A DNA stretch of 64,000 bases, from NCBI GenBank assembly GCA_017305195.1, contig JAFKMU010000035.1:248001-312000 (forward strand). The letters run 5' to 3'. The notes below the pieces were generated by a model that saw only the letters and a list, made by a program, of their open reading frames with translations, had not been told where the DNA came from and made no database searches. Of this stretch, positions 30,619-63,700 are shown piece by piece. The translations under genes were made by a program, and so were the position numbers. The DNA is from Verrucomicrobiota bacterium. Lineage in GTDB: Bacteria > Verrucomicrobiota > Verrucomicrobiia > Chthoniobacterales > Terrimicrobiaceae. The first letter of the stretch is position 1; every line of letters begins with the position of its first letter.

Positions 30619-31440
30619 CTAGAGATCCGTCGATTCTCCCGAGAGGAGGCGGATCTCGCGTCCGTTGAATGTGAAAAAGACCGGGGTGGCGGAGGGGTTG
30701 TGAGCGCGACCGAGATCAAGCGACCAGAGCATCCCGCGCCATGCGGAGATATAGTCATAGACTTGGCGATGGGTGGCAAACCACAGTCCATCCTGCCTCG
30801 CGGCGTCCTGAAGGAAATCTTCGATATGCTGCCAGCCCCACTGCTCCTCAAACTCATAGCTGTGGCCCCAGATATTGAAGAGGCGATCGGACTCCTGCCG
30901 TGTCTTGAAAAATTCCCATTGCTCCGCGAGTTCGGAACCGCAGTGACACGACGTATCCCAGTTGAAAAAATCTGCCGGCGGTTCATGGACCTTGGCGGGA
31001 GAGGAACGCCGCGCATAAAGAAAACCGGCGCGTCTTGCCAGCGGCAGCATGGCGTCGCCGGATGCGCCTCGGCCAAAAGGGAAAACAAACCCCGTGACGA
31101 TCTCCCCGGCGACCGCTTCCAGAACCTGCCGATCCCGAACCATCTCGGCAAAGATCACCTCCGGCGGAAGCGTCCAGAGGCGGGGATGAGTGACGGTGTG
31201 GGAACCAACTTCAAACCCCTTGTACAAGGTCCGCACCTCCTCCGAGGAGATGCAGCGGGGATCACCGCCCTCCTGATCGCAAAAACGATCGCTGCAGAGG
31301 TAGAACGAGCCCTTGAATCCGTGCTCGCGGAAAAGCTGCACCAGTCGCCGGTCATGGACGGTGCCGTCGTCCCAACTGGAGGTTACCGTTCCGGTCAGGA
31401 AGCTCGGCCATCGGAATTGAATGCTCGGCAGTCGGGACAT
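30619..31440 (-). CDS. Polysaccharide deacetylase (NodB-like, CE4)
   Basis: A 273-aa carbohydrate esterase of the NodB type, removing N- or O-acetyl groups from glycans. The metal site is visible: S-S-W-D24-D25-G and H81-T-V-T-H85-P. The frame stays open for 60 more codons, but ATG 31440 aligns with the start of the paralogue at 57696 (M-P-Y-R-S then the same spacing to D-D-G). No signal peptide is seen, so it probably acts on imported fragments. It is divergent from the secreted GH-A-like gene at 31674. The W-G-H-S-Y-E-F-E and D-Y-I-S-A-W-R segments are shared with the paralogue. Confidence 0.88.
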   Translation of the reverse strand: MSRLPSIQFRWPSFLTGTVTSSWDDGTVHDRRLVQLFREHGFKGSFYLCSDRFCDQEGGDPRCISSEEVRTLYKGFEVGSHTVTHPRLWTLPPEVIFAEMVRDRQVLEAVAGEIVTGFVFPFGRGASGDAMLPLARRAGFLYARRSSPAKVHEPPADFFNWDTSCHCGSELAEQWEFFKTRQESDRLFNIWGHSYEFEEQWGWQHIEDFLQDAARQDGLWFATHRQVYDYISAWRGMLWSLDLGRAHNPSATPVFFTFNGREIRLLSGESTDL

Positions 31441-31673
31441 GGTGGGATTCACTCCGTTCATTCTCACATCCCGGCAAGGCAACCCAAATCCCGGAACATG
31501 GAACCTGTCCCGCATTGTGGCCGCTTGGTTCCTCGCTTTCCTTGGTCCGATCTTTTGGGAGCAGTTGCCGAAGAGAAACTTGCGCAATGGCGCAGAGAGT
31601 ATAACGATGAGATCCCTCACCGCGCCCCCCGCAGGACTGTCTCCGGAGGCCTGCGCTCAAGCGCTGTGTCAGA

Positions 31674-34349: not shown

Positions 34350-35399
34350 TCAGGTGGATCGATCGAAGGCCTCGAGCGTGACGCGGGCCTGGATGGGCTG
34401 GCCGGAGAGATAACGCTGGATGTTGGATAGTGCGAACTTTCCGCATCGGGGATGTTCATCCGATGTCGGTCCGCCAATGTGCGGAGAAAGGATGGCGGTC
34501 TCGATGGCAAAGAGCGACGTGCTTTCGGTCACCGGTTCCTCGTGCACGACATCGACCGCGACGCGGAGGCGACCGGATGCGGCCTCCTCCTCCAGCGCGG
34601 ATTCATCGACGGTGAGGCCGCGACCGACGTTGACGAAGACCGCGTCGTCCGGCAGCGCGGCTAGCAGCGTGCGAGTCACGGAAAGATGAGTCTGGGGCGT
34701 GAGCGCCTCGCATTCGAAGAGGACTTCGCTTTGGGAAAAGAGCTCCTCCAGGGTGTCGAGCGGCGTCGCGCCATGGGCGAGGATGTACTCGGGAGGCACG
34801 CCTTCGGAGTACACCACGACGTCGACCCGGAAGGGGTGAAGCAGCTCCAGCAGGGCGCGGGCGATGCGGCCAAATCCATGAATGCCCACGCGCCTGCCGT
34901 AAAGCGACCGGGTTTTTAACACGAGCGCCGGACTGGCATGGAGGGGGGCGTAATCCCGGATGTAGGTGCGCCAGCCGGGAGCGTTGCGCAGGGCGGAAAG
35001 GGCGAGCAGCAGGGCTTGCTCCGCGACTTGCTCGCAGACGGCGTTCCCCCAGTTGCTCACGATGCCGCCGCGCTCGATGAACCAGCGGGGAACGACATTG
35101 CGCACCGATCCGGCAAGGTGGCAGATGTAGCGGGGCGATGGCTGGCCCGGTGTCGGCTCGGGCAGGAGCGGGGTGGACCAGCAGGCGACGAGCACGGTCG
35201 GGCGGAAGCGTCGCAGCGCGTCGGGCCACGATTCCACGGCATCGAGAGGGTCATGCCATTCCATCGCGACCTGGCCGAGCGAGTCGGGACGGAACGCGGG
35301 AAGGAATAATTCCTGCTCGCGGCGGCTGATGGCAAACAGCAGCCGCTCCGTCTGGCTCGCGGCCGGTGAGCGGGAGATGCTGTGGTCGAGGGTTTTCAC
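34350..35399 (-). CDS. D-isomer-specific 2-hydroxyacid dehydrogenase
   Basis: A 349-aa NAD-dependent oxidoreductase of the D-2-hydroxyacid dehydrogenase family. The nucleotide site is G-R-R-V-G-I-H-G-F-G-R-I-A. The catalytic triad is present: Arg in F-V-N-V-G-R-G, Glu in V-V-H-E-E-P and His in L-S-P-H-I-G-G. It is a close relative of the enzyme at 59968 (shared C-W-S-T-P, Y-I-C-H, N-W-G-N and Q-V-A-E-Q-A-L-L-L-A-L-S). The GTG start overlaps the stop of the symporter gene, so it is the last gene of a minus-strand operon with PEP-CTERM, CBM-like and symporter genes. Its 2-keto or 2-hydroxy acid substrate may come from lyase products; that is inference. Confidence 0.88.
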   Translation of the reverse strand: MKTLDHSISRSPAASQTERLLFAISRREQELFLPAFRPDSLGQVAMEWHDPLDAVESWPDALRRFRPTVLVACWSTPLLPEPTPGQPSPRYICHLAGSVRNVVPRWFIERGGIVSNWGNAVCEQVAEQALLLALSALRNAPGWRTYIRDYAPLHASPALVLKTRSLYGRRVGIHGFGRIARALLELLHPFRVDVVVYSEGVPPEYILAHGATPLDTLEELFSQSEVLFECEALTPQTHLSVTRTLLAALPDDAVFVNVGRGLTVDESALEEEAASGRLRVAVDVVHEEPVTESTSLFAIETAILSPHIGGPTSDEHPRCGKFALSNIQRYLSGQPIQARVTLEAFDRST

Positions 35400-37198
35400 G
35401 GGGTTTCAACCAACGATTCGGGTTTGATCGCTGCCGTGGATTCCCTGGCACGGGAGGCGCGGCGGCTGGAGAGAACGAGCAGCCCGCCGATCCCGGCGAT
35501 GAAAGACGCGCAAAATGCCACGGCGATGCGACCTTCCAGAGAGTTCGGGACCAGCAGGAGCAGCGCCATGAGTCCACCCCAGACCAGCGCCATGCGGCCG
35601 ATGCGCCGCGACTGCCGGGAGAGTTCCGACGGAGGACAGGTTTCCTTGTCGGACAAGGGATGGCGCATCGTGGCAAAGAACGTGTCGATCTGCTCGCGGC
35701 GCTCCGGTGAAAGCCTGCCGCCGAGCAGGAACCCCGCGCCGAGATACCAGAGAGAGCCGAGGGAGAAGCTGATGAGCGCCACGAGCGCATAGGAGTGCGT
35801 GCGGATGTATTCCAGCAAGGGGGTGAGTCCCAGGGTCGACGCCAGCGCCTGCACGGCGTGGATGTTGGGCATCAGCCCGAGCAGCGTGCTGATCGCGAGG
35901 CAGAAGATCACCGTCGTCCACGCGGCCCAGTCCGGCGACCGCCGCGTGATCAGGCACCAGAGGGTCGGTACAGCGGTGGGGATCCCGAGCATCACGCTGG
36001 CATTGAGCATCAGCTGGAGCACGCCGACGTCCTTCCACGTACTGTAGAGCAGGGCGAGCGAGATGATAAGCAGGCCGCAGACGATCGTGGCGGCGCGGCC
36101 CACGACCACGAGCTCGCGTTCCCCGGCCAGCGGACGCAGGATCGGCAGGTAAAACGAGCGCACGAAGATGCCGGAGTTGCGGTTGAGCCCGTGATCCATC
36201 GACGACATCGTGGCCGAGATCATGCCGGTGACCATCAAGCCGAGGAGACCGGCGGGAAGGAATCGGTGGGCGATGGCCACATAGGCGCCCTCCGCAGGTT
36301 GCGTCAGCCCCGGCATGAGCGCCGCCATGTCCATATTGAGCGCCCGCGCGGCCATGGGCGGGACGAACCAGATCAGCGAGCCGATCGCAAACAAGCCCGC
36401 CGCCAGCAGGGAAGCCCGCCTCGCGTCGCGGCCATTGCGGGCCGAGAGATAGCGAGTCGCGCCGAGCAGGTTGTTCCCGGCGGAAAGGCGCTCCAGCAGA
36501 GTGGCCACCACCCAGAGAATGCCCATGCCGCTTGCCTGCGAGGCGGTGAAGTCGAGATGCGTGGCGGGGAGTTTCTCGATCAGGCCGGAGAAGCCGCCCA
36601 CTGCGAGAAGCGAATGCACGAAGACCACCAGCGTGATGCCGATCAGCATCAGCGCCTGGAGAAAGTCCCCCGTCGCCACGGCCCACGAGCCGCCCAGCGT
36701 CGTGGCGATGAGCACCACCAGCCCCGCGCCGATGATGACGAGCTTCAGGTCAAAGCCGAAGGCTGGCGCGCAGAAAATGGCCAGCCCGTAAAGTGTAATG
36801 GCTGATCCGATGATCTGGAGCGGCAGCGTCATCCAGGTGAAGAACTGCTCGTTGATCCGCCCGAGCCGCGCCCGCACGGCCTCCATCACCACCACGACCC
36901 GCATCTGGCGGCAGGGCTCGGCCAGCCACAGGGCGTTCAGGACAAAGGAGAGCGTATTCCCGAGATACATGACCAGCACGATCGCGCCGTACTGGTAGGC
37001 GAGGCCGGCCGCTCCCGTGAATGTCCACGCGCTGAAGGACGCCATGAAGGCCGATGCGCCGACCAGCCACCAGGCCATCTCGCCGCCGCCGCGAAAGTAC
37101 TCGCTGCTGTTGCGGGCGAAGCGACGCGAAAGCCACCCCACGCCGAGGAGCAGGACAAAGTACAGCCCGACGACCGCATAGTCGTAGATGGTCAGCAT
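35396..37198 (-). CDS. Sodium/solute symporter (SSS family)
   Basis: A 600-aa membrane protein with about 13-14 hydrophobic helices, starting with Y-D-Y-A-V-V-G-L-Y-F-V and S-S-E-Y-F-R-G-G-G-E-M-A-W-W, which is typical of SSS/SLC5-family transporters. It imports a small solute with sodium, here probably a sugar, uronate or similar product. It starts 3 bases after the stop of the CBM-like gene and overlaps the dehydrogenase gene by 4 bases, so the three are cotranslated from one mRNA. A functionally parallel but sequence-divergent SSS protein closes locus III at 61745. Confidence 0.92.
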   Translation of the reverse strand: MLTIYDYAVVGLYFVLLLGVGWLSRRFARNSSEYFRGGGEMAWWLVGASAFMASFSAWTFTGAAGLAYQYGAIVLVMYLGNTLSFVLNALWLAEPCRQMRVVVVMEAVRARLGRINEQFFTWMTLPLQIIGSAITLYGLAIFCAPAFGFDLKLVIIGAGLVVLIATTLGGSWAVATGDFLQALMLIGITLVVFVHSLLAVGGFSGLIEKLPATHLDFTASQASGMGILWVVATLLERLSAGNNLLGATRYLSARNGRDARRASLLAAGLFAIGSLIWFVPPMAARALNMDMAALMPGLTQPAEGAYVAIAHRFLPAGLLGLMVTGMISATMSSMDHGLNRNSGIFVRSFYLPILRPLAGERELVVVGRAATIVCGLLIISLALLYSTWKDVGVLQLMLNASVMLGIPTAVPTLWCLITRRSPDWAAWTTVIFCLAISTLLGLMPNIHAVQALASTLGLTPLLEYIRTHSYALVALISFSLGSLWYLGAGFLLGGRLSPERREQIDTFFATMRHPLSDKETCPPSELSRQSRRIGRMALVWGGLMALLLLVPNSLEGRIAVAFCASFIAGIGGLLVLSSRRASRARESTAAIKPESLVETP

Positions 37199-37201
37199 GG
37201 A

Positions 37202-37804
37202 TCAGCGAGTGCGCTCGACGACAAAGTCATCGATGAAAAACTCCCCCGTGCCGCGCCAGAGAAACACGGCGGGGCGCATGGACGTGGTATCGTCCGGCAC
37301 GACGAACTCCGCCTCCACCTTGGTCCACTGGGTGGGCAGGGGCTCGGTGACGAAGTCGTTGGGGGAATCCTGCGGAGAAAGCAGGCGGGACTGGCCCTTC
37401 CAGTCGATGGTCACGATGCCGACCGAGTCGCGCCCGTTCATCATATCCATTCTTAGCAGCATGCCGGATTGGTCGTTCTGTCCCTCAAAGTTCTTTCCGG
37501 CCTTGATCCACAGGGAGACCTTGAACTTCTCGCCGGGCTCCACCGGGATCGGCGTGCCCTTGGGGGAGATGGCGATGCGGCCATTATCTTCCGAGGAGAG
37601 CCGGGCGCAGGCTTTGCCGGAGTGCGGCGACTCCTTGACGACCTCAAAGGCGCAGTGCCGGTCGATGCTGTCGTTCGGGATGTACGGGGCGTTCCAGCCC
37701 GTGGTGTCTTCCTCGAAACCTGGATCGCGCACGATGTTCTGGGCGACGAGGTTTGACGCGGTGAACACGAGGAGGCTGGCGAGGAGGAGAGGGGAGTATT
37801 TCAT
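37202..37804 (-). CDS. Small exported CBM4/9-like carbohydrate-binding protein
   Basis: A 200-aa protein. ATG 37804 gives a signal peptide (M-K-Y-S-P-L-L-L-A-S-L-L-V, cut near L-V-A-Q); the open frame extends upstream only through the preceding gene's end. The mature part is a jelly-roll of CBM4/9 type: I-V-R-D-P-G-F-E-E-D-T-T-G-W near the start, P-V-E-P-G-E-K-F-K-V-S-L-W-I in the middle and F-F-I-D-D-F-V-V-E at the end. It has no catalytic domain, so it may capture glycan for the transporter or act as a soluble lectin. A same-size paralogue is at 57110. It lies 11 bases after the PEP-CTERM gene. Confidence 0.8.
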   Translation of the reverse strand: MKYSPLLLASLLVFTASNLVAQNIVRDPGFEEDTTGWNAPYIPNDSIDRHCAFEVVKESPHSGKACARLSSEDNGRIAISPKGTPIPVEPGEKFKVSLWIKAGKNFEGQNDQSGMLLRMDMMNGRDSVGIVTIDWKGQSRLLSPQDSPNDFVTEPLPTQWTKVEAEFVVPDDTTSMRPAVFLWRGTGEFFIDDFVVERTR

Positions 37805-37815
37805 AAATGGGATGC

Positions 37816-39291
37816 TTAGCAGAGATGAGGGGAGTTTGCCTTGCGGCGAATCACCGTGGCTACGCCCAACAGGCCCAGCACAGCGAGCGCAAAAGCGCCG
37901 GGCTCGGGCACGGCGGATACGGTGAACTGCAAAAGGTTGCCATCGCCGCCATAGGCGAATGTCCCCGCCCAACCGGCTGACTGGCTGGCTGAGGACAAGG
38001 CGAAGGTGCTCAGCGCGATCCCTTGGGCGGTTCCTCCAAAGCTGATCAGGTCGTAGGTCGTGCCGATGGCTGCGCCACTGGAGCCGAGGAGGTCAAAGAC
38101 CACGCTGCCATTGCCACCCAGGGCAGATCCCGTCATCGAGGACGAGGCCAGCGTGATCATGTCCTGCGCCGTACCGAGTCGGAACTCGATGGTCGCCTGA
38201 CCCAGGAAGACGAGGCCCTTGGACGAGGCGTTGCCGCCCGAGATCGTCATCGTTCCGGCAGCATCGGCCGTGCCCGGCTTGAGCGTGCCGCCGCTTTCGA
38301 TGGTGACATTGCGCGCAGTCGATCCGGTGGAGAGCGAGATCGTGCCGTTGACCCCGAGCAGCGCACCGTTTTTCACGACATAGTCTCCCTGGCCGGTCAC
38401 TCCGGTGAACCCGGTGCCATAGGTGCCGTTGAGGTACAGCCTGCCTCCCTCGACCGTGGTGGCTCCCTCATAGCCGCCCGTCCCGGAGATGGACAGGACG
38501 CCCGTTCCCGCCTTGGTGAAGGCGAGCACGTGATCGGTGCGCGTGAGGTTTTCCCCGATGGTGCCGGTGAAGGTCGTGTTGGTCGACTGCTCCACCCGCA
38601 GCGTGCGCGTCCCTCCCGTGGAGGAAAATTGTCCCGGAAACTTGATGTTACCATTGCCCGAGAGTTCCCCGATCGTTGCGACGGTCCCGATGACGCCCGG
38701 ACCGATTTCCAGGTTGCCGCCCGAGGCCAGATGGACCTTGGTATTGACGCCTACCGAGTTTGCCCCCGTTCCCAACTGGCTGCCGATGAGCAGGCTCACG
38801 GTGGAAACCGATGACCCGTTGATCGTGATGGTGCCATTCCAGGCGGTGCTGCCGGTGAGCAGGACCTTCAGATTCAGGGCCGTGCCGGAGGTGCGTTGAT
38901 CCGTGAGGGAAAAGTCTCCGCTGCCGCCCTGCGTGATGGTCAGCCCGCGGGTCGTGCTGGTGGCTCCGGAGCCCGATGCATACAGGGCCGCGCCGTTCTC
39001 GATCGTCACGGTGGTTGCACTGACATTCCAAAGATGGATTTGTGCGTTGGACGTCACGATGTCCGCCTCGTTGGCGTTTGTCCAATAGGTCGATGGCGAT
39101 CCCGTCGATGTCGTGGCCCAATCGAGCGAGTTGGTAGCGGTTGTCCAGTTGCCGCTCGTGCCGGTCCAGTAATAGGTGCTGGCCGGGAGGCACGACAACG
39201 CCGCGACGGCGAAGAGGCCCGCGAGGCGGGGGGTGGTAAGAAATGTCCGGCGATTGCGGACCGGGCGGAGGCTGGCGGGGGTGGAGTTCAT
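37816..39291 (-). CDS. PEP-CTERM beta-helix (autotransporter-repeat) surface protein
   Basis: A 491-aa exported protein, ATG 39291, with a signal peptide whose basic n-region is unusually long (R-P-V-R-N-R-R-T) before A-G-L-F-A-V-A-A-L. The body is Gly/Thr/Ser rich, with autotransporter-associated beta-strand repeats such as F-T-K-A-G-T-G-V-L-S-I-S-G and G-A-T-T-V-E-G-G-R-L-Y-L-N-G-T. The end is a PEP-CTERM signal: V-P-E-P-G-A, hydrophobic helix, R-R-K. It heads the operon with the CBM-like, symporter and dehydrogenase genes. An ATAACACAGTT operator-like site lies about 50 bases upstream. It likely forms a surface or matrix layer that holds substrate. Confidence 0.88.
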   Translation of the reverse strand: MNSTPASLRPVRNRRTFLTTPRLAGLFAVAALSCLPASTYYWTGTSGNWTTATNSLDWATTSTGSPSTYWTNANEADIVTSNAQIHLWNVSATTVTIENGAALYASGSGATSTTRGLTITQGGSGDFSLTDQRTSGTALNLKVLLTGSTAWNGTITINGSSVSTVSLLIGSQLGTGANSVGVNTKVHLASGGNLEIGPGVIGTVATIGELSGNGNIKFPGQFSSTGGTRTLRVEQSTNTTFTGTIGENLTRTDHVLAFTKAGTGVLSISGTGGYEGATTVEGGRLYLNGTYGTGFTGVTGQGDYVVKNGALLGVNGTISLSTGSTARNVTIESGGTLKPGTADAAGTMTISGGNASSKGLVFLGQATIEFRLGTAQDMITLASSSMTGSALGGNGSVVFDLLGSSGAAIGTTYDLISFGGTAQGIALSTFALSSASQSAGWAGTFAYGGDGNLLQFTVSAVPEPGAFALAVLGLLGVATVIRRKANSPHLC

Positions 39292-39340
39292 ATGCGTCGG
39301 ATGGTTGCGTCGGAGAAACAAGGGGACAAGGGGTTTGTCT

Positions 39341-39351
39341 ATAACACAGTT
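39341..39351 (-). promoter_or_regulatory. Operator-like site ATAACACAGTT (copy 1)
   Basis: Eleven bases identical to the site at 41562-41572 in the opposite orientation. AAC and GTT arms flank ACA. It lies between the Gfo/Idh gene and the PEP-CTERM operon, just before the start of the latter. It is probably bound by the LacI protein encoded at 40481. Confidence 0.4.
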
Positions 39352-39364
39352 TAGTTAGAGGGAT

Positions 39365-52916: not shown

Positions 52917-52938
52917 GGATCAGCTCCCGACGTCCGAT

Positions 52939-54882: not shown

Positions 54883-54927
54883 TCCATACCATCGATACCG
54901 CCTTCCGAAGGAGCAATCGAGCATGGA

Positions 54928-54942
54928 ATCTAACAATAGAGT
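54928..54942 (-). promoter_or_regulatory. Locus III operator, copy C (ACTCTATTGTTAGAT)
   Basis: Matches the consensus except for the last positions. It precedes the lyase gene on the minus strand, about 46 bases from its ATG, and lies 80 bases from copy D, which serves the divergent GH16 gene. Confidence 0.58.
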
Positions 54943-55021
54943 ATGAGAGAATGCTGCTTCTCAAAGCGGAGGCCGCCGTTGATGCGACCTGCGTCCAATC
55001 GACCTCTCCTTCACGGTTTCA

Positions 55022-55037
55022 ACTCTATTGTAGGAGT
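55022..55037 (+). promoter_or_regulatory. Locus III operator, copy D (ACTCTATTGTAGGAGT)
   Basis: Precedes the GH16 gene by about 58 bases. ACTC and GAGT ends are exact; two inner bases vary. With copy C it forms a paired-site arrangement in a divergent intergenic region. Confidence 0.58.
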
Positions 55038-55094
55038 ATTTTACACGATACCAAATGCTTCCTCACCGGGAGGCATTTTCGCTAATGAGCAAGC

Positions 55095-57029
55095 ATGTCC
55101 CCCTTGACATTCCTGCGTACGAGCCTCATCGCGGCCATCACTCTCACATTACCATGTTCCGCCCAGATTCTTTCGTGCGGGTTCGAGGCGAGCGAAGGAT
55201 ACTCTCCGGGAAACCTCGGCGCTTCCGGTCCATGGTCGATCGCACTAAACAACGGAGCAGGGACGGGCATATCGTCCGTAACGGTCGTGACTGCGACGGC
55301 CAACACAGGCACGCAATCCCTTTTGATTCAGGATAACAACACGGCCAACCGGCCGGTCGTCACATGTGACCTCGGCGAGAGCTGCAGTTCGGGAATCCTC
55401 CGCCTTGCCATCCGAAGGGCCACCTCCAGCGCGACGGCATGGTATTTGAATTTCTATAATGCCTCGAATGCGAAGGTCTTCGGGCTGATCTGCGATGGAG
55501 CCAGTACCATCTCCCTGACCGGAGGAGCGGCAGGAACCACGACCCTGGCAACCTACACCAATGCCAGTCTCCTCAGCACACTATCCTCGTGGGCAAACCT
55601 GGAGATTCGATTTAATGAGGCCACTCACGGCGCCAGCGTGCTTCTCAATGGCACAACGGTGCTATCGGCCTACAGCGTTGCTACGAACTGGTCGGTTCGC
55701 AAATTTGATCTCTCGGCAGGCTACGGCTCCGGAACCAATCTCGGAATCTACCTCGACTCCCTCTCGGTCACTCCGCTGCCTCCGCTCAATGGCTCCTGGC
55801 TCCTGACGTTCTCGGATGAATTTAAATCCCCCAACACCTATCTCGATGGATCAAAGTGGAAGGTCGGGGAGGCAAGCCTGTGGATCAATGGCCAGGGTGG
55901 GAACGATCCCGGGAACATCTCCCAGGCCGCGGGAGTGCTCAACCTGCGCTCGCAAGTCCGCAACTATACTTTTGGAGGCACTAACTACGCCTATACTGGA
56001 GCAGAGTTATCGACATTCGGACTCTTCCGACAGCAGTATGGCTACTTTGAGGTTCGCGCCCGGTTTCCCTTCATTACTGGCCTCTGGCCTGCATTCTGGT
56101 TGATGCCGGACCGAGGAGCCTATGGCAATCTCAGCGGCTACTACCGGTCATTACTGAAGTTCGACCTGAATGGAGCCAATATCTCCCAGGTCAACTCCGC
56201 CTATCTCAAACTGACTGTGTCCTCTGCTGATCAAGGCTCAGGCAATAACTTGCTGGTTTTGAAAGTCAGAGACGATTCGTGGACTGAAACGGGCGTAACC
56301 TGGAATAACCAGCCAGTGCAGGATCCCGCCTGGATTGCGCAAGCCTACAATCAGACCTATGCATCAGGCCAGCAGCTGACTTTTGATGTGAAAGATTTCG
56401 TCACAGAGAAGCTTGCAGGGAATCGCCAGGTCTCAATCCTGCTCGCAGATACCTTTCGTCGGGTCAGGCAGATCAAGTTCTACAGCAAAGAATGGCCCTC
56501 CGCCTCGGTGCGTCCTCAGTTGGTCGTGAACGGCGTCACTTACTATCCGGTTGCCGATTCCAGCTTGCAGAACGGCACTGCGGCTAATACGAACTTCGGC
56601 TCTACGACCGAACTCGTGGTCCGTGACGACTGGGGAGATACCTCCTCGACCTACAACGGCGGCATGGAGGTGGATATTTGGGAGTCGCTGTCATTTGAGG
56701 GGCAAAACTCAGCCTATCAGACGCTCCATTGGGATGGATATGGCGTGGATCACCAATCCGCAGGCACCGGCCTGCAGAACTTCACTCCGACCATGGACGG
56801 CTATCATACCTACGGGGTCTACTGGGAGAGTGGCTTGATGGAGTTTTATGTGGATGGAGTGAAAACCTACACCTTCGCAAACTCCCGAGCCTGCAGCGTC
56901 CCGTGTTATATCCTGCTATCCCTGCAGCTTGGAGGGTGGGATCCGGCTAACGCTCCTGGTTCCCAGGTGGACAACCAACTGACTCAGGTCGATTGGGTAC
57001 GCGTATGGAGCGGGACAAAGCAGCCATAG
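55095..57029 (+). CDS. GH16 beta-glucanase-like enzyme with inserted DNRLRE/CBM96-like domain
   Basis: A 644-aa exported enzyme. The signal peptide ends near C-S-A-Q. Residues 25-230 are the ConA-like module shared with the PEP-CTERM protein at 46616. GH16 starts near 240 (F-S-D-E-F, W-K-V-G-E, G-L-W-P-A-F-W-L-M-P-D-R-G at 329-341). The catalytic motif M-E-V-D-I-W-E is at 524-530, so E525 is the nucleophile and E530 the acid/base. Between P-D-R-G and this motif about 180 residues are inserted, resembling a DNRLRE/CBM96-type domain: L-L-K-F-D-L, W-N-N-Q-P, then N-T-N-F-G-S-T-T-E-L-V-V-R-D-D. Substrate is probably a beta-glucan or a galactan. Confidence 0.87.
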   Translation: MSPLTFLRTSLIAAITLTLPCSAQILSCGFEASEGYSPGNLGASGPWSIALNNGAGTGISSVTVVTATANTGTQSLLIQDNNTANRPVVTCDLGESCSSGILRLAIRRATSSATAWYLNFYNASNAKVFGLICDGASTISLTGGAAGTTTLATYTNASLLSTLSSWANLEIRFNEATHGASVLLNGTTVLSAYSVATNWSVRKFDLSAGYGSGTNLGIYLDSLSVTPLPPLNGSWLLTFSDEFKSPNTYLDGSKWKVGEASLWINGQGGNDPGNISQAAGVLNLRSQVRNYTFGGTNYAYTGAELSTFGLFRQQYGYFEVRARFPFITGLWPAFWLMPDRGAYGNLSGYYRSLLKFDLNGANISQVNSAYLKLTVSSADQGSGNNLLVLKVRDDSWTETGVTWNNQPVQDPAWIAQAYNQTYASGQQLTFDVKDFVTEKLAGNRQVSILLADTFRRVRQIKFYSKEWPSASVRPQLVVNGVTYYPVADSSLQNGTAANTNFGSTTELVVRDDWGDTSSTYNGGMEVDIWESLSFEGQNSAYQTLHWDGYGVDHQSAGTGLQNFTPTMDGYHTYGVYWESGLMEFYVDGVKTYTFANSRACSVPCYILLSLQLGGWDPANAPGSQVDNQLTQVDWVRVWSGTKQP

Positions 57030-57048
57030 ATAAAGGCGCCAGATCGTT

Positions 57049-57064
57049 CCTCTATTGTTCGAGT
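57049..57064 (+). promoter_or_regulatory. Locus III operator, copy E (CCTCTATTGTTCGAGT)
   Basis: Lies 46 bases before the CBM-like gene that opens the three-gene unit of CBM-like protein, deacetylase and esterase. Fifteen of 16 bases match copy F. Confidence 0.6.
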
Positions 57065-57109
57065 AGTCGGTCGTTTGACCCATCGTGCGGGCCTGCCCAT
57101 AGTGTTAGC

Positions 57110-57655
57110 ATGTCATACCGAGTTTCCCTCACCGTCTTGCTCGCCGCCATGGCGTCCTTCTCTTCTCTCTGTCGCGCAGATGAGGCTCTGAATCTGGAGA
57201 ATCCCGGATTCGAAGCGGACCGGCAAGGCTGGGTCTGGGGAAAAGAAGACTCGGAATCCGAACTGAGCCGCGTCACCACCGAAAGTGCCTACAAAGGCAA
57301 GCTGGGCCTGAGTGTGATCGTGGCAGATGGCGAACAGGCGCCGATGGGATCGAGCGTGCTGAGCAACAAGGTGCCGGTCGAGCCAGGCAGCGTCTATCGC
57401 ATGACCTTCTACGCCCGCTGCAACGAAAAGAGTGGCATCGGAGTCATGCTGCAGTTTTACAACGAAGGATTCTCCATCGTGGGCGATGCCAAGCAGATCC
57501 TCCCGATGGAAGTCGGGGATTGGACGGAGTATAAAGTTGAAGCTCCAGCTCCGCCGAATGCCGCTTACGCGGCGATCTTCATCCACTCCTGGTCGAGGAA
57601 CCGGTGCAATGTGGATTTCGATGACTTTACCATCTCGAAGGTGACGAAACCCTGA
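57110..57655 (+). CDS. Small exported CBM4/9-like carbohydrate-binding protein
   Basis: A 181-aa protein with signal peptide M-S-Y-R-V-S-L-T-V-L-L-A-A-M-A, cut near C-R-A-D. The jelly-roll features match the paralogue at 37202: N-L-E-N-P-G-F-E-A-D-R-Q-G-W, P-V-E-P-G-S-V-Y-R-M-T-F-Y-A-R and a final V-D-F-D-D-F-T-I-S. The upstream open frame to 56993 overlaps the GH16 gene and is rejected because only ATG 57110 gives a signal peptide. It is first in a unit with the deacetylase and the esterase. Confidence 0.8.
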   Translation: MSYRVSLTVLLAAMASFSSLCRADEALNLENPGFEADRQGWVWGKEDSESELSRVTTESAYKGKLGLSVIVADGEQAPMGSSVLSNKVPVEPGSVYRMTFYARCNEKSGIGVMLQFYNEGFSIVGDAKQILPMEVGDWTEYKVEAPAPPNAAYAAIFIHSWSRNRCNVDFDDFTISKVTKP

Positions 57656-57695
57656 TCCGCAGCACATCGCGTCAATTCGGGTCTTGAGACTGACC

Positions 57696-58541
57696 ATGCC
57701 TTACCGCTCGGTCGTTCGGTTGAATCGGTTTCCGGGAGGAGTCCAAAAGGCTGTCACCGCCAGCTACGACGACGGCGCGGTTCATGATCGGCGTCTTGTC
57801 TCCATCTTCAACAAAGCTGGGCTGAAAGGAACATTCCATCTCAACTCAGGACTATTGGGAAGGAGCGATGTCCTCACGGAAGAGGAAATATGCAGCCTGT
57901 TCTCAGGGCATGAAGTAGCTATCCACAGCATGACCCATCCTCATTTGACCAGCTTGTCGCCGATCCAGCTTTCCTATGAGGTCATGGCCGATCGCCGAAA
58001 CCTGGAATCTCTGGTTGGCTATCCGGTTCGAGGGATGTCCTATCCCTTCGGAACGAAAAGCGCCGCGCTTTCGGCCAGCCTCGAGGCCTACGGAATCGAG
58101 TACGCCAGAGTGGTATCGGAAAGCAGGAGCGACTACGCCATGCCGGGGGATTGGTTGGACTGGCATCCGACCTGCCACCACAAGGACCGACTCTGCGAGC
58201 GATTTGAGACCTTCGTCGCATCCGATCCCTGGGTGGAGATGGCGTTGTTTTATGTCTGGGGTCACAGCTTCGAGTTTCACCGCGAGGACAATTGGGAGAT
58301 CGCAGAGGAGTTTGCGAAAATGGCCCGGAGCCACCGGGAGGAGCTTTGGTTCGCCACGAATATCGAAATCAAAGACTACATGGAGGCCCTGAGGCAGGTG
58401 AAGATATCCCTCGACGGGACTCACATCCTTAATCCGAGCGCCCACACTGTCTGGATGGAGATTGATGGGGAGGCAGCCACGCTCGCCCCCGGAAATCTCT
58501 TGAACTGCCGAAGCCTCACGGCGCGCCCTTTTTATCAATGA
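57696..58541 (+). CDS. Polysaccharide deacetylase (NodB-like, CE4)
   Basis: A 281-aa enzyme. Metal ligands are in place: S-Y-D25-D26-G and H77-S-M-T-H81-P. Also present are G-M-S-Y-P-F-G and Y-V-W-G-H-S-F-E-F. It is a paralogue of the enzyme at 30619, with matching start (M-P-Y-R-S; I prefer ATG 57696 over the TTG at 57684). There is no signal peptide. The stop overlaps the esterase start (ATGA at 58538). Deacetylation of imported oligosaccharides before further breakdown is the likely role; the sugar is not known. Confidence 0.88.
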   Translation: MPYRSVVRLNRFPGGVQKAVTASYDDGAVHDRRLVSIFNKAGLKGTFHLNSGLLGRSDVLTEEEICSLFSGHEVAIHSMTHPHLTSLSPIQLSYEVMADRRNLESLVGYPVRGMSYPFGTKSAALSASLEAYGIEYARVVSESRSDYAMPGDWLDWHPTCHHKDRLCERFETFVASDPWVEMALFYVWGHSFEFHREDNWEIAEEFAKMARSHREELWFATNIEIKDYMEALRQVKISLDGTHILNPSAHTVWMEIDGEAATLAPGNLLNCRSLTARPFYQ

Positions 58542-59875
58542 AACTTTTGCCTATCGGATGGGTCTGCCTTTTGCCCATCGTTCAAGGTCTCGCTGCCGAT
58601 CCGGCCCCGTCGCTGGTTATTTCTCCGTCGCGCCCGTCAGGGGTCTGGCAAACGGGAGAAAAGATCGTCTGGAATGTTTCCTTCGCGGGCGGAAACGCAA
58701 CGACTCCTTCCAAGATCAGCTATGTCATCAAGCGAAACGGAGCAGATAATGTTCGGCGGGATCAGGTAAATCTGAATAGCGGCGCCGGCGCAATCGAAGC
58801 CCAGGCGGATGGCCCGTCGACTCTCCTGCTGGAGGCGACCGCCTCCCAGCCAGGAAAGCCAGTGCTGCGCACGGCCGCAGGGGCGGCTATTGAGCCATGG
58901 CAGATTACACGTTCGGCTCCGCTGCCCGAGGATTTCGATTCATTCTGGGATTCCATGGTCAACCGCATGGCCTCCACGCCGCCGGACGCCACGCTGGAGA
59001 AATTGGAGAGCGGGCGCAACGGAGTGGAGTATTGGAAGGTTACGCTAAAGGGATATGCTGGCATTCAGGTCCGCGGCCAGATCGCCCGCCCTGTCGGCGG
59101 GAACAAGCTGCCCGCACTGGTCGTTTTTCAGTGGGCGGGAGTTTATCCGCTGAAGAAGGAATGGGTCGTGGATCGCGCCGCCGAGGGATGGCTGGCGATG
59201 AACATCATGGCTCATGATCTCCCCATCGACGAGCCCCAGCCCTTCTACGATCACGAGGCGTCGACCACGCTCAACAACTACGCGAGCATCGGAAACGACG
59301 ATCGCGAAAAGAGCTATTTTCTTCGGATGTTTCTCGCATGCTATCAGGCGATCGAATACCTGACGCAGAGGCCGGATTGGGATGGGCGGAATCTCCTGGC
59401 CACCGGCGGGAGCCAGGGAGCATTGCAAGCCCTTGCGGCAGCCGCCCTGCATCCCGCCGTCACGGGTGTCACCGCCCTCGTGCCTGCTGGTTGCGACCAT
59501 ACCGGACGTGAAGCTGGGCGTCAGCCGGGCTGGCCATTTTGGATCGCCAATGGTGGATCAGGAAAACCGGAGGCAGTCTTCGAGACATCCCGCTATTTCG
59601 ATGCCGTGAATTTTGCGCATCGCATCAGATGCCCTGTGCTGATCGGCCTCGGACTCATCGACACCACTTCACCTCCCTCAGGCGTCTTTGCGCTCGTGAA
59701 TCAGCTTCAATGCCCGAGAGAGGTGGTCATCATGCCAGCCTCCGACCATGGCGGAGCAAAAAACTCCCAGGCGCCCTTTCAGACCAGGGCAGGGGCCTGG
59801 AGGCGCGCGGTGCTGGAGGGGAAGAACATCCCTCTGATTTCCTGGAACAAGGAAAGCGCATTGCCAGCACAGTAG
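58538..59875 (+). CDS. Exported CE7-like (acetyl xylan esterase type) alpha/beta hydrolase
   Basis: A 445-aa exported esterase; the signal peptide ends near G-L-A-A-D. Residues 25-125 form a beta-sandwich-like domain. The CE7/AXE1 fold follows: P-L-P-E-D-F-D-S-F-W (typical start), W-A-G-V-Y-P-L, then the nucleophile S292 in T-G-G-S-Q-G, D375 in L-G-L-I-D-T-T-S-P-P and H404 in S-D-H-G-G. Such enzymes remove acetyl groups from xylan or sugars. Translation is coupled to the deacetylase. Together they suggest that the locus III substrate is acetylated. Confidence 0.87.
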   Translation: MKLLPIGWVCLLPIVQGLAADPAPSLVISPSRPSGVWQTGEKIVWNVSFAGGNATTPSKISYVIKRNGADNVRRDQVNLNSGAGAIEAQADGPSTLLLEATASQPGKPVLRTAAGAAIEPWQITRSAPLPEDFDSFWDSMVNRMASTPPDATLEKLESGRNGVEYWKVTLKGYAGIQVRGQIARPVGGNKLPALVVFQWAGVYPLKKEWVVDRAAEGWLAMNIMAHDLPIDEPQPFYDHEASTTLNNYASIGNDDREKSYFLRMFLACYQAIEYLTQRPDWDGRNLLATGGSQGALQALAAAALHPAVTGVTALVPAGCDHTGREAGRQPGWPFWIANGGSGKPEAVFETSRYFDAVNFAHRIRCPVLIGLGLIDTTSPPSGVFALVNQLQCPREVVIMPASDHGGAKNSQAPFQTRAGAWRRAVLEGKNIPLISWNKESALPAQ

Positions 59876-59908
59876 GCTTCCGGTTCTGCAAACGGGGAGC
59901 GTTTCCGG

Positions 59909-59924
59909 ACTCTATTGTTCGAGT
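59909..59924 (+). promoter_or_regulatory. Locus III operator, copy F (ACTCTATTGTTCGAGT)
   Basis: The copy taken as consensus. It lies 34 bases after the esterase stop and 44 bases before the chosen dehydrogenase start, so that gene probably has its own promoter. Confidence 0.6.
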
Positions 59925-59967
59925 TCAGGTGCGATTGTGGCGGCGTCTCTGGCCGGGGATTATTCCC

Positions 59968-61089
59968 ATGCCTTGCCGCGCAAGAATCATGGAACTTTTG
60001 AACACCGTCCCCAATCTTATCGAGGAAGAAAGTGCTGCCAATCGGACTGAGAAATCCGTCTGCTCGCTTCCAGCCACAGACCGGCTCCTGGTGACTCTCA
60101 ATCGGTACGAACTGCGAAAGTTTTTTCCGGATACGGCTCTGTTGGAATCCATCTTTCCGGAAACACACAGCATTGAAGCCTGTTGCCTCAAGGAAGAACA
60201 ATGGCACGCCGCCCTCCGGAGCTATCAACCCACCGCGATTTTGTCGTGCTGGTCTACTCCGCGTATTCCGGAGGATATTGCGGGGAATCCAGAGTCGCCG
60301 CTGAAGTATATCTGTCACGTCACCGGTAGTCCTAAAAATTTGGTTCCCAGGTCGTTTTTTGAACGCGGAGGGATTGTCACAAACTGGGGGAACCTCGCTG
60401 CGGGTCAGGTCGCTGAGCAGGCGCTTCTTCTCGCCCTGTCGGCGCTGAGAAACCAGGGCGCCTGGCGGTCCCAGACGGAGGAATTCAGCCACACGCCATT
60501 TTGGGACATGGTCGAGACCTTGCAAACAAGGACTCTCTTTGGACGCCGGGTGGGGGTGCACGGCTTCGGTCAGATCGCCCAGAGCCTTGTCCGGCTCCTC
60601 CGTCCGTTTAATGTCCAGGTATTCGCCTACTCCCAAGGAGTTCCTCCCGAGATCATGAGGCAGGCAGACGTGGTGCCCTGTGAATCTCTGGCCGCATTGT
60701 TCTCCCAGAGCGAAGTCCTCTTCGAATGCGAGGCGTTGACTCCAGGCACTTTTCAATGTGTCGACGAAAGCCTTCTTTCTTGCCTTCCGGATGGTGCGGT
60801 ATTCGTCAATATCGCTCGCGGGCACCTGGCGAATGAGGCCGCTCTCCAGCGCGAGCTCCAGTCAGGCCGTATCCGGGTGGCTCTGGATGTCGTGGCGACA
60901 GAACCCCTCACTCCGGAGCATCCATTCTGGACCTACCCCAATGCGATAATGTCCCCGCATATCGGAGCCCCGACGGCAGACAGGACGTACGCCTACGGCG
61001 ACTTCGCCTCTGAGAATCTCCGTCGTTTTCGAAATCGAATGCCTCTTCAAGGCGTCGTCTCAATATCCGCCTACGATCGGTGCACATAG
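59968..61089 (+). CDS. D-isomer-specific 2-hydroxyacid dehydrogenase
   Basis: A 373-aa paralogue of the enzyme at 34350. NAD site: G-R-R-V-G-V-H-G-F-G-Q-I-A. Triad: Arg in F-V-N-I-A-R-G, Glu in V-V-A-T-E-P, His in M-S-P-H-I-G-A. The open frame begins far upstream inside the esterase gene; ATG 59968, with CGGGGAT about 10 bases before it, is preferred, and ATG 59989 is possible. About 25 extra N-terminal residues are not in the paralogue. It has its own regulon operator. Presumed to process a 2-keto or 2-hydroxy acid derived from the degraded polysaccharide. Confidence 0.88.
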   Translation: MPCRARIMELLNTVPNLIEEESAANRTEKSVCSLPATDRLLVTLNRYELRKFFPDTALLESIFPETHSIEACCLKEEQWHAALRSYQPTAILSCWSTPRIPEDIAGNPESPLKYICHVTGSPKNLVPRSFFERGGIVTNWGNLAAGQVAEQALLLALSALRNQGAWRSQTEEFSHTPFWDMVETLQTRTLFGRRVGVHGFGQIAQSLVRLLRPFNVQVFAYSQGVPPEIMRQADVVPCESLAALFSQSEVLFECEALTPGTFQCVDESLLSCLPDGAVFVNIARGHLANEAALQRELQSGRIRVALDVVATEPLTPEHPFWTYPNAIMSPHIGAPTADRTYAYGDFASENLRRFRNRMPLQGVVSISAYDRCT

Positions 61090-61545: not shown

Positions 61546-61744
61546 AGTCCGGTGGTCCATGACGCTGCGTGATCGCTCTGCGCCATCTTCCTCCCACTTA
61601 GTACCCATGACTTTTCGGACAGCCTCTACGAGGTGAGAGCGCTGGGCTTGGTTCCCGGCGATGCTGTTCCCCAGAGTCGATTTTTCTCGCCGATGTGGTC
61701 TCCCAAAGGAAATGACATCTGGGCGAGGGGAGAATAGAGGGATG

Positions 61745-63700
61745 CTAGTGGCTGGAGTCGCTGAGGTTGTGGTGATTCACCACCATGCCGTTGTCTTCCG
61801 CGTCGGGACGCTCCTGGCGGAGCCGGGAGAAAAAGAGCCGCATATCGCGGATGCCGCCCCATGTGAACCAGATCGCCGTGACGAAGGCGAAGAAGACCGG
61901 AATGCCGATGCCCACAACAAACCAGAAACGGGACCATACGGAAATGGGCCAAGGCGCGATGAGGTTCCAGATTGACCCCACTACGAGCACGCTAAACCAC
62001 AGCATGCTCCATCCAAAAAGACCGCCAGCCAGGAATTTGTCGCCGAGCGTGAAGTGCTCGTCAAAGCCGATCAACCTGCCCCACGTGACGCGCTTTGCCG
62101 GAGCGGTTTCAAAAGCTTGCTCGGATTTCACTGCATACCGCCCCCGGTGCAGCATGCGATCCATGTCGAAGGCTTCCCGGCAGGTTAGCAGGGAAACGAT
62201 GGCATAGACGACACAGGCGGAGACCGCGCCAAAGAAGCCGATCTGCGCGCCATTGAGGGAGAAGGCGTCGCCCCAGATCTGTCGGGCCATGATGCCACCG
62301 GTGACCAGGCTGGAGCCCGTCAGCAGCCCGGCCCAGGCCCCTGCGGTAGTGCCCTTCTTCCAGTAGAGTCCCCCGATGATGGCGACTCCGGCTCCGCCCA
62401 CGTAGATCGCCTCTGTCACCGCCCACCACATCATAACGTACTCGGTTTGCTTGAAGAGGCAGCCAAAGGAGAAGGCAAAGACCGCCACCCCGATCATTGA
62501 GGCGCGCAGGAGGCGGATGTGCTGCTTCGGCGTGAATGGCTTCTTGCGCAGGGGCAGGATGACGTCCTGGATGAAGAGACTGCCCCAGGAGAGCAGGTGT
62601 GTCCCGTCGCCGCCAAAGATGCCCATGAGCAGGATGATGCAGAGCAGCCCTTTGATGCCCTCGGGCAGCATGTGTACGACTGCGATCGGGATCGTCATTT
62701 GCTCCTGGAGCTGCGGCTGGCCGATCTCGGCCACCTGCTGCTTCACGACGGCCGCCTGCACCGTGAAATCGGGGTGCGCCAGATAGGTCATCGCACAGAC
62801 GGCGAGCAAGGTGATGATGGCGGAGTTTCCCAGGCCCTTCCAGTTGGCCATCACGCCGCCCATTCGCGATTCGTGGGGAGTCACCGCCGCCGTCGCGTAG
62901 GCGCCCTGGTTTTGCCAGGCCATCGTCCGGTAGACCGCGCCAAACAAGCCCATCAGCACGTACCAGATGTTGAAATCCTTCAGCCCCATCGAGTCGAAGG
63001 GGTTGAGCAGAGATTCTCCGGGCGGGCGGTTCTCCAGTACGGTGGAAATCTCCGACCAGCTGAACATCGTGAAAAGAAAGGCAATGATGATGAGAAAGAG
63101 CACCATCGACACCATGCCCTCCAGGCAGTTTGTCACCATCAGCGTGATAAGGCCGCCGGAGAGGGTAAGGGCGAGGCTGATCGTCAGCAGCACCGCCATC
63201 AGCGGGATATACGTCGCCACCTCCCAGCCAAAGAGATGCACCGTGGGCGGAAGGCCGAGGAAGTACGTCATGAACCGCGCTCCTACGACCGGGATGATGC
63301 CGAAGTTGGCAATGCCTGCCGCGAAGCCCAGGAACCCCGTGAAGATGCGAAACCGCTTGCTGTAGCGAATCTCAAAGAACTGCGCCAGGGTGAGCGCCCG
63401 CGTCTCGCGGAAGCGGTAGATCACCCATCCGCTGATCGCCACAATGAGCGTCACCGGCACGCTCAGCCATCCCCACCACGTCAGCACGAAGCCCGACTTG
63501 GAGATCATCTCAAACATCGCCACAAACACCACCGCGCCAACGCCCTGCTCGCCCTTTGCCACCGCCAGCAGATAGCGTCCGGCCATGCGGCCTCCGGAGA
63601 GAAAGTCTACCACGCCCTTGAGGTAACTCCGAGTATAAAGCGCCACCACTAGCAGGCCGAGCAACGGCAAACTAATCAATAACCAATCAATGAGATGCAT
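61745..63700 (-). CDS. Sodium/solute symporter (SSS family)
   Basis: A 651-aa membrane protein with about 14 hydrophobic segments. ATG 63700 starts directly before the first helix (W-L-L-I-S-L-P-L-L-G-L-L); the 25 codons further upstream are ordinary intergenic sequence. SSS features are V-V-D-F-L-S-G-G-R-M-A-G-R-Y, L-T-L-A-Q-F-F-E-I-R-Y-S-K-R-F and G-G-A-G-V-A-I-I-G-G-L-Y-W. It is longer than the locus II transporter, with an additional C-terminal part containing F-D-E-H-F-T-L-G-D-K. It would import the products of locus III degradation. It is convergent with the dehydrogenase. Confidence 0.9.
   Translation of the reverse strand: MHLIDWLLISLPLLGLLVVALYTRSYLKGVVDFLSGGRMAGRYLLAVAKGEQGVGAVVFVAMFEMISKSGFVLTWWGWLSVPVTLIVAISGWVIYRFRETRALTLAQFFEIRYSKRFRIFTGFLGFAAGIANFGIIPVVGARFMTYFLGLPPTVHLFGWEVATYIPLMAVLLTISLALTLSGGLITLMVTNCLEGMVSMVLFLIIIAFLFTMFSWSEISTVLENRPPGESLLNPFDSMGLKDFNIWYVLMGLFGAVYRTMAWQNQGAYATAAVTPHESRMGGVMANWKGLGNSAIITLLAVCAMTYLAHPDFTVQAAVVKQQVAEIGQPQLQEQMTIPIAVVHMLPEGIKGLLCIILLMGIFGGDGTHLLSWGSLFIQDVILPLRKKPFTPKQHIRLLRASMIGVAVFAFSFGCLFKQTEYVMMWWAVTEAIYVGGAGVAIIGGLYWKKGTTAGAWAGLLTGSSLVTGGIMARQIWGDAFSLNGAQIGFFGAVSACVVYAIVSLLTCREAFDMDRMLHRGRYAVKSEQAFETAPAKRVTWGRLIGFDEHFTLGDKFLAGGLFGWSMLWFSVLVVGSIWNLIAPWPISVWSRFWFVVGIGIPVFFAFVTAIWFTWGGIRDMRLFFSRLRQERPDAEDNGMVVNHHNLSDSSH

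What the first reader, a model, noticed from the sequence alone, without database searches (positions are those of the whole stretch)
30619..63700. Two paralogous loci with the same seven-part toolkit
Locus II (30.6-44.7 kb) and locus III (46.6-63.7 kb) both hold LacI regulator, PEP-CTERM surface protein, pseudopilin, heparinase II/III-type lyase, CBM4/9-like protein, NodB deacetylase, D-2-hydroxyacid dehydrogenase and SSS transporter. Order and strand differ, so this is not a simple tandem duplication. The shared set looks like a verrucomicrobial counterpart of Bacteroidetes PULs, but without SusC/SusD.
Basis: partly seen in the sequence, partly recalled or inferred. Interest (0 to 1): 0.7.

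Follow-up and report, generated by a model that had tools for sequence, protein, structure and literature searches.

The report
LacI-run sugar loci with surface genes
The two gene clusters are members of a larger bacterial family of separately switched kits for digesting acidic polysaccharides, and unusually the same switch appears to control both the digestive enzymes and a surface protein and pilus-like protein, where the classic gut-bacterial kits would have SusC/SusD uptake proteins.

Summary
All eight named families are present in both intervals, so the inventory holds. The framing needs correcting. (1) "Locus II" is not one unit: its NodB gene belongs to a 19-kb stretch shared with locus I in strain LR76. 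The real unit is a 10.3-kb block (34352-44647) conserved gene for gene in two congeners without NodB. Locus III is a separate conserved block (46629-61089). (2) II and III are not sister copies. They are two of nine LacI/2-hydroxyacid-dehydrogenase (HADH) loci in this Terrimicrobium-like genome. LacI and HADH trees agree that III's closest relative is a third locus (contig C32). Only LacI, HADH and NodB are clear II-III homologues; the lyases belong to different families (PL35/PL39-like and PL33-like), and transporters and pseudopilins differ too. (3) The set does recur in other families and another order. (4) New here: locus III carries six copies of a 16-bp operator in front of nearly all its transcription units, including the PEP-CTERM and pseudopilin genes, footprinted against LR76 (93% vs 72%, p=1.5e-6). 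Comparable operators occur at related loci in two further families. The genome has no SusD and no detected TonB receptor. Best reading: LacI-controlled acidic-polysaccharide regulons that include their own surface and pseudopilin genes.

The parts
30619..31461 (-).
   Evidence: PF01522 E 6.6e-16; colinear with LR76 C9 up to 31514
34352..44647 (.). Locus II core block, conserved gene for gene in LR76 (C13) and G001 (C2)
   Evidence: single 10.3-kb alignment, 84% identity in both; gene order L018/L040, L032
34350..35399 (-). D-2-hydroxyacid dehydrogenase (II)
   Evidence: PF02826 E 1.5e-33; 49% identical to III
35396..37198 (-). SSS transporter (II), SGLT-like
   Evidence: PF00474; PDB SGLT matches
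37202..37804 (-). CBM4/9-like secreted protein (II)
   Evidence: PF02018 E 5.4e-10, 40.2 bits vs cut-off 25.9
37816..39321 (-). PEP-CTERM surface protein with PATR repeat (II), mid-cluster between cbm and gfo
   Evidence: PF07589 23.8 vs 20.7 bits
39365..40396 (-). GFO/IDH/MocA oxidoreductase (II)
   Evidence: PF01408
40481..41563 (-). LacI regulator (II); closest paralogue is at the C74 locus
   Evidence: PF00356; tree 98/91
41645..42304 (+). GspG-like pseudopilin (II), 14 bp upstream of the lyase gene
   Evidence: T2SS/T4P N-terminal models, best 22.1 bits, below cut-offs
42319..44655 (+). Heparinase II/III-type lyase (II), PL35/PL15/PL39-like
   Evidence: PF07940; PDB 9o3q PL35 E 1.1e-17, 3a0o PL15, 6jp4 PL39
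46629..61089 (.). Locus III block, conserved (inverted) in LR76 C9:350655-365116
   Evidence: 82-87% identity
46616..47416 (-). PEP-CTERM protein (III)
   Evidence: TIGR02595 23.4 vs 16 bits
47557..48627 (+). LacI regulator (III); closest paralogue is at the C32 locus
   Evidence: PF00356; tree 97/96
48898..52221 (+). GspK/Verru_Chthon-A-like giant pseudopilin (III)
   Evidence: N-terminal matches NF037980 and TIGR02600, below cut-off
52218..52916 (+). Secreted companion protein, function unknown; homologue follows the same pseudopilin in sister loci
   Evidence: tail232 family
52939..54936 (-). Heparinase II/III-type lyase (III), PL33-like, catalytic Asn/Tyr/His conserved
   Evidence: PDB 8r73 E 1.2e-38
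55095..57029 (+). GH16 with CBM96 inserted in the catalytic domain; N-terminal module shared with the PEP-CTERM protein
   Evidence: PF00722, PF24517; NF041449 on residues 235-337; 47% over 243 aa to 46616-47416
57110..57655 (+). CBM4/9-like protein (III)
   Evidence: PF02018 E 7.6e-5, just under cut-off
57684..58541 (+). NodB deacetylase (III)
   Evidence: PF01522 E 1.6e-16
58538..59875 (+). AXE1-type acetyl esterase (III)
   Evidence: PF05448 E 7.9e-42
60013..61089 (+). D-2-hydroxyacid dehydrogenase (III); start uncertain
   Evidence: PF02826 E 2.1e-37
61745..63700 (-). SSS transporter near locus III, outside the conserved block; same subfamily as one in G066's HADH locus
   Evidence: PF00474 E 1.8e-12; sssA match in L050
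47466..47481 (.). Operator-like site 1, between PEP-CTERM and LacI
   Evidence: CCTCTAACAATAGAGT, identical in LR76
48689..48704 (.). Operator-like site 2, between LacI and pseudopilin
   Evidence: ACTCTATTGTTGGAGT
54927..54942 (.). Operator-like site 3, at the lyase gene start, lyase/GH16 divergent region
   Evidence: AATCTAACAATAGAGT, identical in LR76
55022..55037 (.). Operator-like site 4, before GH16
   Evidence: ACTCTATTGTAGGAGT
57049..57064 (.). Operator-like site 5, before CBM-NodB-AXE1
   Evidence: CCTCTATTGTTCGAGT
59909..59924 (.). Operator-like site 6, before HADH
   Evidence: ACTCTATTGTTCGAGT

Best explanation
Loci II (block 34352-44647) and III (block 46629-61089) are two members of a family of LacI-controlled loci for uronate-containing (acidic) polysaccharides that radiated in an ancestor of this Terrimicrobium-like lineage. 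In locus III a LacI repressor binds a 16-bp operator in front of nearly every transcription unit. When the matching sugar is present, the cell co-induces a secreted beta-elimination lyase (PL33-like), GH16, CBM, deacetylase and esterase, a cytoplasmic 2-hydroxyacid dehydrogenase that probably reduces a sugar-derived 2-keto acid, and also a PEP-CTERM surface protein and a pseudopilin; an SSS transporter that would import the products lies next to the block in III and inside it in II. The surface protein and pseudopilin presumably hold or deliver the digestion machinery at the cell surface, a place taken by SusC/SusD in Bacteroidota. Locus II is built the same way as two divergent operons with a PL35/PL39-like lyase. 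Shown: gene content, conserved blocks, trees, recurrence, operator copies and their footprint, absence of SusD and PF00593 matches. Inferred: that LacI binds these sites, the substrates, the HADH reaction, transport direction, and the role of the PEP-CTERM and pseudopilin proteins.
For: Gene content. Conserved blocks. Nine HADH paralogues here, 7 and 9 in congeners; 7/9 within 5 kb of LacI vs 1.0 expected. Concordant LacI and HADH sister pairs (Mantel r 0.51, p 0.011). Other HADH loci hold PF05426 alginate lyase, PF14099 lyase, rhamnogalacturonase-like lyases, GH106, GH92, RhaT. Six operator copies in III (5 found at <=1 mismatch vs 0.07 expected), at orthologous positions in LR76, 93% vs 72% conserved, p 1.5e-6. 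Different multi-copy operators in G097 (5 vs 0.01 expected) and G066 (5 sites), also at PEP-CTERM, pilin, lyase and HADH genes. LacI-pseudopilin and LacI-PEP-CTERM enrichment genome-wide. No SusD or TonB barrel, one exosortase. PL33/PL35 relatives with aligned catalytic residues.
Against: No repeated operator is found in locus II, which has few promoter regions. Most other LacI loci of the genome gave no operator above shuffled controls (4 of the further stretches tested exceeded the largest of 20 shuffles), so the regulon claim is firm only for III and the G097 and G066 loci. HADH taken alone is not significantly closer to pseudopilins or PEP-CTERM genes than random positions. Substrates and HADH reaction rest on family resemblance. 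The C17 locus is rhamnosidase-type rather than lyase-type.
Confidence: 0.7

Rival explanations
1. Loci II and III are direct duplicates of one ancestral eight-gene locus, later rearranged.
For: All eight families occur in both intervals; LacI 40%, HADH 49%, NodB 36% identical.
Against: HADH and LacI of III are sister to the C32 locus with strong support, and LacI of II to C74; lyases 22% identical and closest to different PL families, II's lyase being 41-42% identical to that of the C74 locus and III's 43% to that of G097; SSS and pseudopilins non-homologous or of different type; NodB of II outside the conserved block.
Confidence: 0.07
2. The PEP-CTERM and pseudopilin genes are abundant filler in the accessory parts of the genome (100 and 139 copies) and sit near LacI genes only because all of these accumulate in plastic regions.
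For: High genome-wide copy numbers; HADH alone is not enriched next to them; blocks II and III lie in rearranged surroundings with gene fragments.
Against: Operator copies lie in front of these genes in III, G097 and G066, and those of III are conserved in LR76; LacI enrichment is 2-3 fold and also seen in another family; in II the PEP-CTERM gene sits inside a tightly packed six-gene cluster conserved in three genomes.
Confidence: 0.18
3. The loci build or remodel the cell's own exopolysaccharide rather than digest a foreign one, as PEP-CTERM proteins are tied to exopolysaccharide in Proteobacteria (Haft 2006, PMC1569441).
For: PEP-CTERM and NodB genes neighbour exopolysaccharide genes in that study.
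Against: LacI and sugar transporters (SSS, MFS, RhaT), lyases, GH106, GH92, GH3 and a catabolic-type dehydrogenase point to breakdown and uptake; no glycosyltransferase or polymer-export gene was recognised in the blocks.
Confidence: 0.05

Closest known systems
Bacteroidota polysaccharide utilisation locus (PUL)
   Same: Regulator, lyase/hydrolases, binding proteins, deacetylase/esterase and transporter co-located and probably co-regulated per substrate
   Different: No SusC/SusD; LacI instead of HTCS, SusR or sigma factors; PEP-CTERM and pseudopilin genes in the regulon
TonB-dependent carbohydrate utilisation (CUT) loci of freshwater Verrucomicrobia (He 2017, PMC5615132)
   Same: Same phylum, per-substrate saccharolytic clusters
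   Different: Those carry TonB-dependent receptors; this genome has no PF00593 match
PEP-CTERM/exosortase surface sorting (Haft 2006, PMC1569441)
   Same: PEP-CTERM tails and one exosortase
   Different: In Proteobacteria the genes are tied to sigma-54/PrsR and exopolysaccharide loci; here they sit in LacI sugar loci. That paper lists 65 PEP-CTERM genes and no PrsK/R/T for Verrucomicrobium spinosum
PL33 lyases (PMC11848413) and PL35 lyases (PMC12088678)
   Same: Lyase of III aligns with PL33 over the whole length with the Asn/Tyr/His triad; lyase of II aligns with PL35
   Different: Distant relatives; II has an Asn-His pair at the neutraliser site (by alignment) that resembles alginate lyases such as PL39; substrate unknown
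Verru_Chthon cassette (TIGR02596, TIGR02598-TIGR02600)
   Same: N-termini of 48898-52221 and of the locus I pseudopilins match these models
   Different: Far below the subfamily cut-offs; locus III has only the A-like member

Membership tests
Bacteroidota PUL | SusC/SusD pair | tested here: not met
   No PF07980 in the genome, control rings in Bacteroides; no PF00593
Bacteroidota PUL | Co-located carbohydrate-active enzymes, regulator and transporter | tested here: met
TonB-dependent CUT locus | TonB-dependent receptor in the locus | tested here: not met
   No PF00593 in the genome
LacI-regulated sugar regulon | LacI-family regulator with HTH and sugar-binding domain | tested here: met
   PF00356 and PF13377 in both loci
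LacI-regulated sugar regulon | Repeated palindromic operator at promoters of the locus | tested here: met
   Locus III only: six sites, footprinted; not found in II
LacI-regulated sugar regulon | The regulator binds the operator and responds to a sugar | not testable with these tools
   needs a binding assay and RNA-seq
PEP-CTERM/exosortase system | PEP-CTERM tail plus an exosortase in the genome | tested here: met
PL33 | Full-length similarity and catalytic Asn/Tyr/His | tested here: met
   8r73 E 1.2e-38, aligned NWN, SYW and ESHGH motifs in the lyase of III
PL33 | Lyase activity on glucuronate polymers | not testable with these tools
   none
PL35 | Full-length similarity and catalytic residues (lyase of II) | tested here: inconclusive
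   E 1e-17, Tyr and His aligned, neutraliser site differs; PL15 and PL39 also match
Verru_Chthon cassette protein A (TIGR02600) | Score over subfamily cut-off 332.3 | tested here: not met
   19.9 bits, N-terminus only
II-III direct paralogy | Genes of II and III are sisters in trees | tested here: not met
   III groups with C32, LacI of II with C74

The most novel reading that the evidence does not exclude
Verrucomicrobiota lacking SusC/SusD and TonB receptors place a dedicated PEP-CTERM surface protein and pseudopilin under each sugar-specific LacI repressor, so that every polysaccharide induces its own surface or secretion module as well as its own enzymes. This would give the many PEP-CTERM (100) and pseudopilin (139) genes of such genomes a substrate-specific role.
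Probability: 0.5. Interest if true: 0.78.

Novelty: new variant of a known kind. Interest (0 to 1): 0.58.

Why it matters
It offers a testable explanation for two long-standing oddities of Verrucomicrobiota: the very large PEP-CTERM and pseudopilin families, and how polysaccharide specialists manage without SusC/SusD. If surface proteins and pseudopilins are induced per substrate by LacI repressors, their function and substrate can be read from the operator they share with a lyase. No paper found in the held library links these three components.

Tried and rejected
The 37188-37925 (+) ORF was first taken as a gene; it is antisense to the real CBM gene 37202-37804 (-). A search for classical CG-centred LacI operators found none in the window at promoters; the real operator is not CG-centred. 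A motif search requiring 6 of 8 palindromic pairs missed the locus III operator; relaxed to 5 of 8 it was the top hit. No shared operator was found for locus II. A structure prediction of the 232-aa companion protein (52218-52916) was still not finished when last collected. The enrichment of HADH alone near pseudopilins and PEP-CTERM genes was tested and is not significant. Full-text searches for Verru_Chthon and for pseudopilin + PEP-CTERM + Verrucomicrobia returned nothing. The comM fragment was considered as an island insertion hotspot but not established.
Full report
Setting. The window is G000:C36:248001-312000 of a 5.11-Mb assembly in 75 contigs. Two genomes share its genus. The other, G001, has three contigs and about 4.8 Mb, which fits Terrimicrobium sacchariphilum NM-5 (PMC5532833); that identification is inferred.

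Inventory. The CBM4/9 gene of locus II is 37202-37804 on the minus strand, masked by an antisense ORF. The loci also differ: II has a GFO/IDH/MocA oxidoreductase; III has a GH16 with an inserted CBM96, an AXE1 esterase and a 232-aa secreted companion of the pseudopilin. Between the loci only LacI (40%), HADH (49%) and NodB (36%) are clear homologues; the CBM proteins (24%) and lyases (22%) are weak, and the transporters are undetectable by BLASTP. The lyase of III is closest to PL33 (8r73, E 1.2e-38, Asn/Tyr/His aligned), that of II to PL35 (E 1.1e-17) with PL15 and PL39 behind (PMC11848413, PMC12088678).

What the units are. Dc-megablast against LR76 and G001 gives three clean blocks. Window 12524-31514 is colinear with LR76 C9:254001-272992, so the NodB gene of 'locus II' travels with locus I. 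Window 34352-44647 aligns end to end with LR76 C13 and G001 C2 (84%) and carries hadh-sss-cbm-PEP-CTERM-gfo-lacI / pseudopilin-lyase without NodB. Window 46629-61089 aligns with LR76 C9:350655-365116; the SSS gene at 61745-63700 is outside it. LR76 has its NodB orthologue of II at C9:272097, apart from its locus II block.

Paralogy. The HADH subfamily has nine close members in this genome, 7 and 9 in the congeners, and one or two in 13 other genomes of the 197 searched. In G000, 7 of 9 lie within 5 kb of a LacI gene (1.0 expected). In the trees HADH of III is sister to that of the C32 locus (100/100) and LacI of III to that of C32 (97/96); LacI of II is sister to that of C74 (98/91), whose lyase is also the closest relative of II's lyase among the loci compared (41%); C17 and C36:229k are sisters in both trees. 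Distances in the two trees correlate (Mantel r 0.51, p 0.011, 8 loci). So LacI and HADH largely diversified together, but II and III are not a pair.

What the family does. The sister loci carry other acidic-polysaccharide or rhamnose enzymes: PF05426 alginate lyase and SASA esterase (C48); PF14099 lyase and beta-helix protein (C3); rhamnogalacturonase-like lyases and CBM4/9-deacetylases (C32, C42, C36:229k); GH92 (C32); GH106, GH3 and RhaT (C17); heparinase-type lyase, GDSL esterase, MFS and GH78 (C74). HADH resembles glyoxylate/hydroxypyruvate and 2-ketogluconate reductases. The simplest reading, an inference, is a reductase for a 2-keto acid from uronate or deoxysugar breakdown.

Recurrence elsewhere. 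The set reappears outside the genus: G097 (another family; lyase-lacI-GH16-axe-hadh-PEP-CTERM-pilins-giant pseudopilin), G066 (lacI-PEP-CTERM-hadh-GH16-SSS-pilin), Cerasicoccus frondis L019 (PEP-CTERM-lacI-lyase-sulfatase-pilin-hadh-SSS), a Puniceicoccaceae MAG L023 and an uncultured verrucomicrobial MAG L020.

Operators. Locus III holds six copies of ACTCTATTGTTSGAGT: PEP-CTERM/LacI, LacI/pseudopilin, lyase/GH16 (two), before CBM-NodB-AXE1, and before HADH. Five are found at up to one mismatch in 64 kb against 0.07 expected, eight at up to two mismatches against 0.78 expected, two of these within genes. All six are at orthologous positions in LR76 and are 93% conserved against 72% for the rest of the same intergenic DNA (p 1.5e-6). 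A search for repeated near-palindromes with shuffled controls found this motif as the top hit (score 92, null maximum 30) and comparable, different motifs in G097 (67 vs 33) and G066 (77 vs 43), again in front of PEP-CTERM, pilin, lyase and HADH genes; weaker ones at C74 (37 vs 35; three sites) and elsewhere. This puts PEP-CTERM and pseudopilin genes in the same predicted regulon as the lyase. Locus II gives no repeated motif, as expected of two divergent operons with few promoters.

Genome-wide pattern. The genome has 43 LacI, 100 PEP-CTERM and 139 pseudopilin N-termini at permissive thresholds. LacI genes have a pseudopilin within 10 kb in 32 of 43 cases (15 expected), a PEP-CTERM in 30 (16 expected), both in 27 (9.6 expected); 17 lie within 2.5 kb of a PEP-CTERM against 4.0 expected. 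The LacI-pseudopilin link holds in G001 (24/44 vs 8.1) and in G097 (16/27 vs 3.1) (truncated pilin lists). Among the further LacI-bearing stretches of this genome and one of LR76 that were tested, four had an operator above all shuffles, so the regulon statement cannot yet be extended to the whole genome.

Known or new. SusC/SusD-less saccharolytic clusters in Verrucomicrobia are known in outline (TonB-type CUT loci, PMC5615132). This genome has neither SusD nor PF00593 and one exosortase. PEP-CTERM control has been described for Proteobacteria (sigma-54/PrsR), with Verrucomicrobium spinosum listed with 65 PEP-CTERM proteins and no PrsK/R/T (PMC1569441). I found no paper in the held library that places PEP-CTERM and pseudopilin genes in LacI sugar regulons; most subscription journals are not held, so this is not proof of novelty.

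Noticed in passing
window 44715-45218 (-), 45936-46532 (+): Gene fragments between loci II and III: C-terminal piece of a ComM-type Mg-chelatase protein (a 95% identical copy of part of it at G000:C36 about 350 kb) and a GH94 fragment.
   Followed up: partly
window 45160-45381 and 61263-61485: A 223-bp direct repeat (80% identical) flanks locus III; the same element is at LR76 C9:316.4k. Possible scar of block movement.
   Followed up: partly
window 33434-33835 (-): Short PEP-CTERM C-terminal remnant in poorly coding DNA beside locus II.
   Followed up: no
window 55095-57029: GH16 catalytic domain appears interrupted by a CBM96 module; its N-terminal 240 aa are shared (47%) with the PEP-CTERM protein at 46616-47416.
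   Followed up: no
window 19911-29160: Locus I carries a Verru_Chthon-like pseudopilin cassette (about six genes) next to a LacI and a PEP-CTERM gene, the same triad as in II and III.
   Followed up: partly
window 31674-33227 (+): 517-aa secreted protein without Pfam match; only a weak resemblance to a beta-galactosidase structure (6y2k, E 0.033).
   Followed up: no
L026:6871 and L034:13246: Perfect palindrome ACTCTACACATAGAGT between LacI and a PEP-CTERM gene in both genomes, close in form to the locus III operator.
   Followed up: partly
L080:14898 and 16005; L090:8258; L075:2340, 10273: Other LacI loci with repeated palindromes (AGTTATCACGATAACT, GAGAAAGTACTTTCTC, TCACATCCGGATGTGA) beside PEP-CTERM or pilin genes.
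   Followed up: partly
G000 whole genome: No TonB-dependent receptor barrel (PF00593) detected in a 5.1-Mb Gram-negative saccharolytic genome that is about 95% complete.
   Followed up: partly
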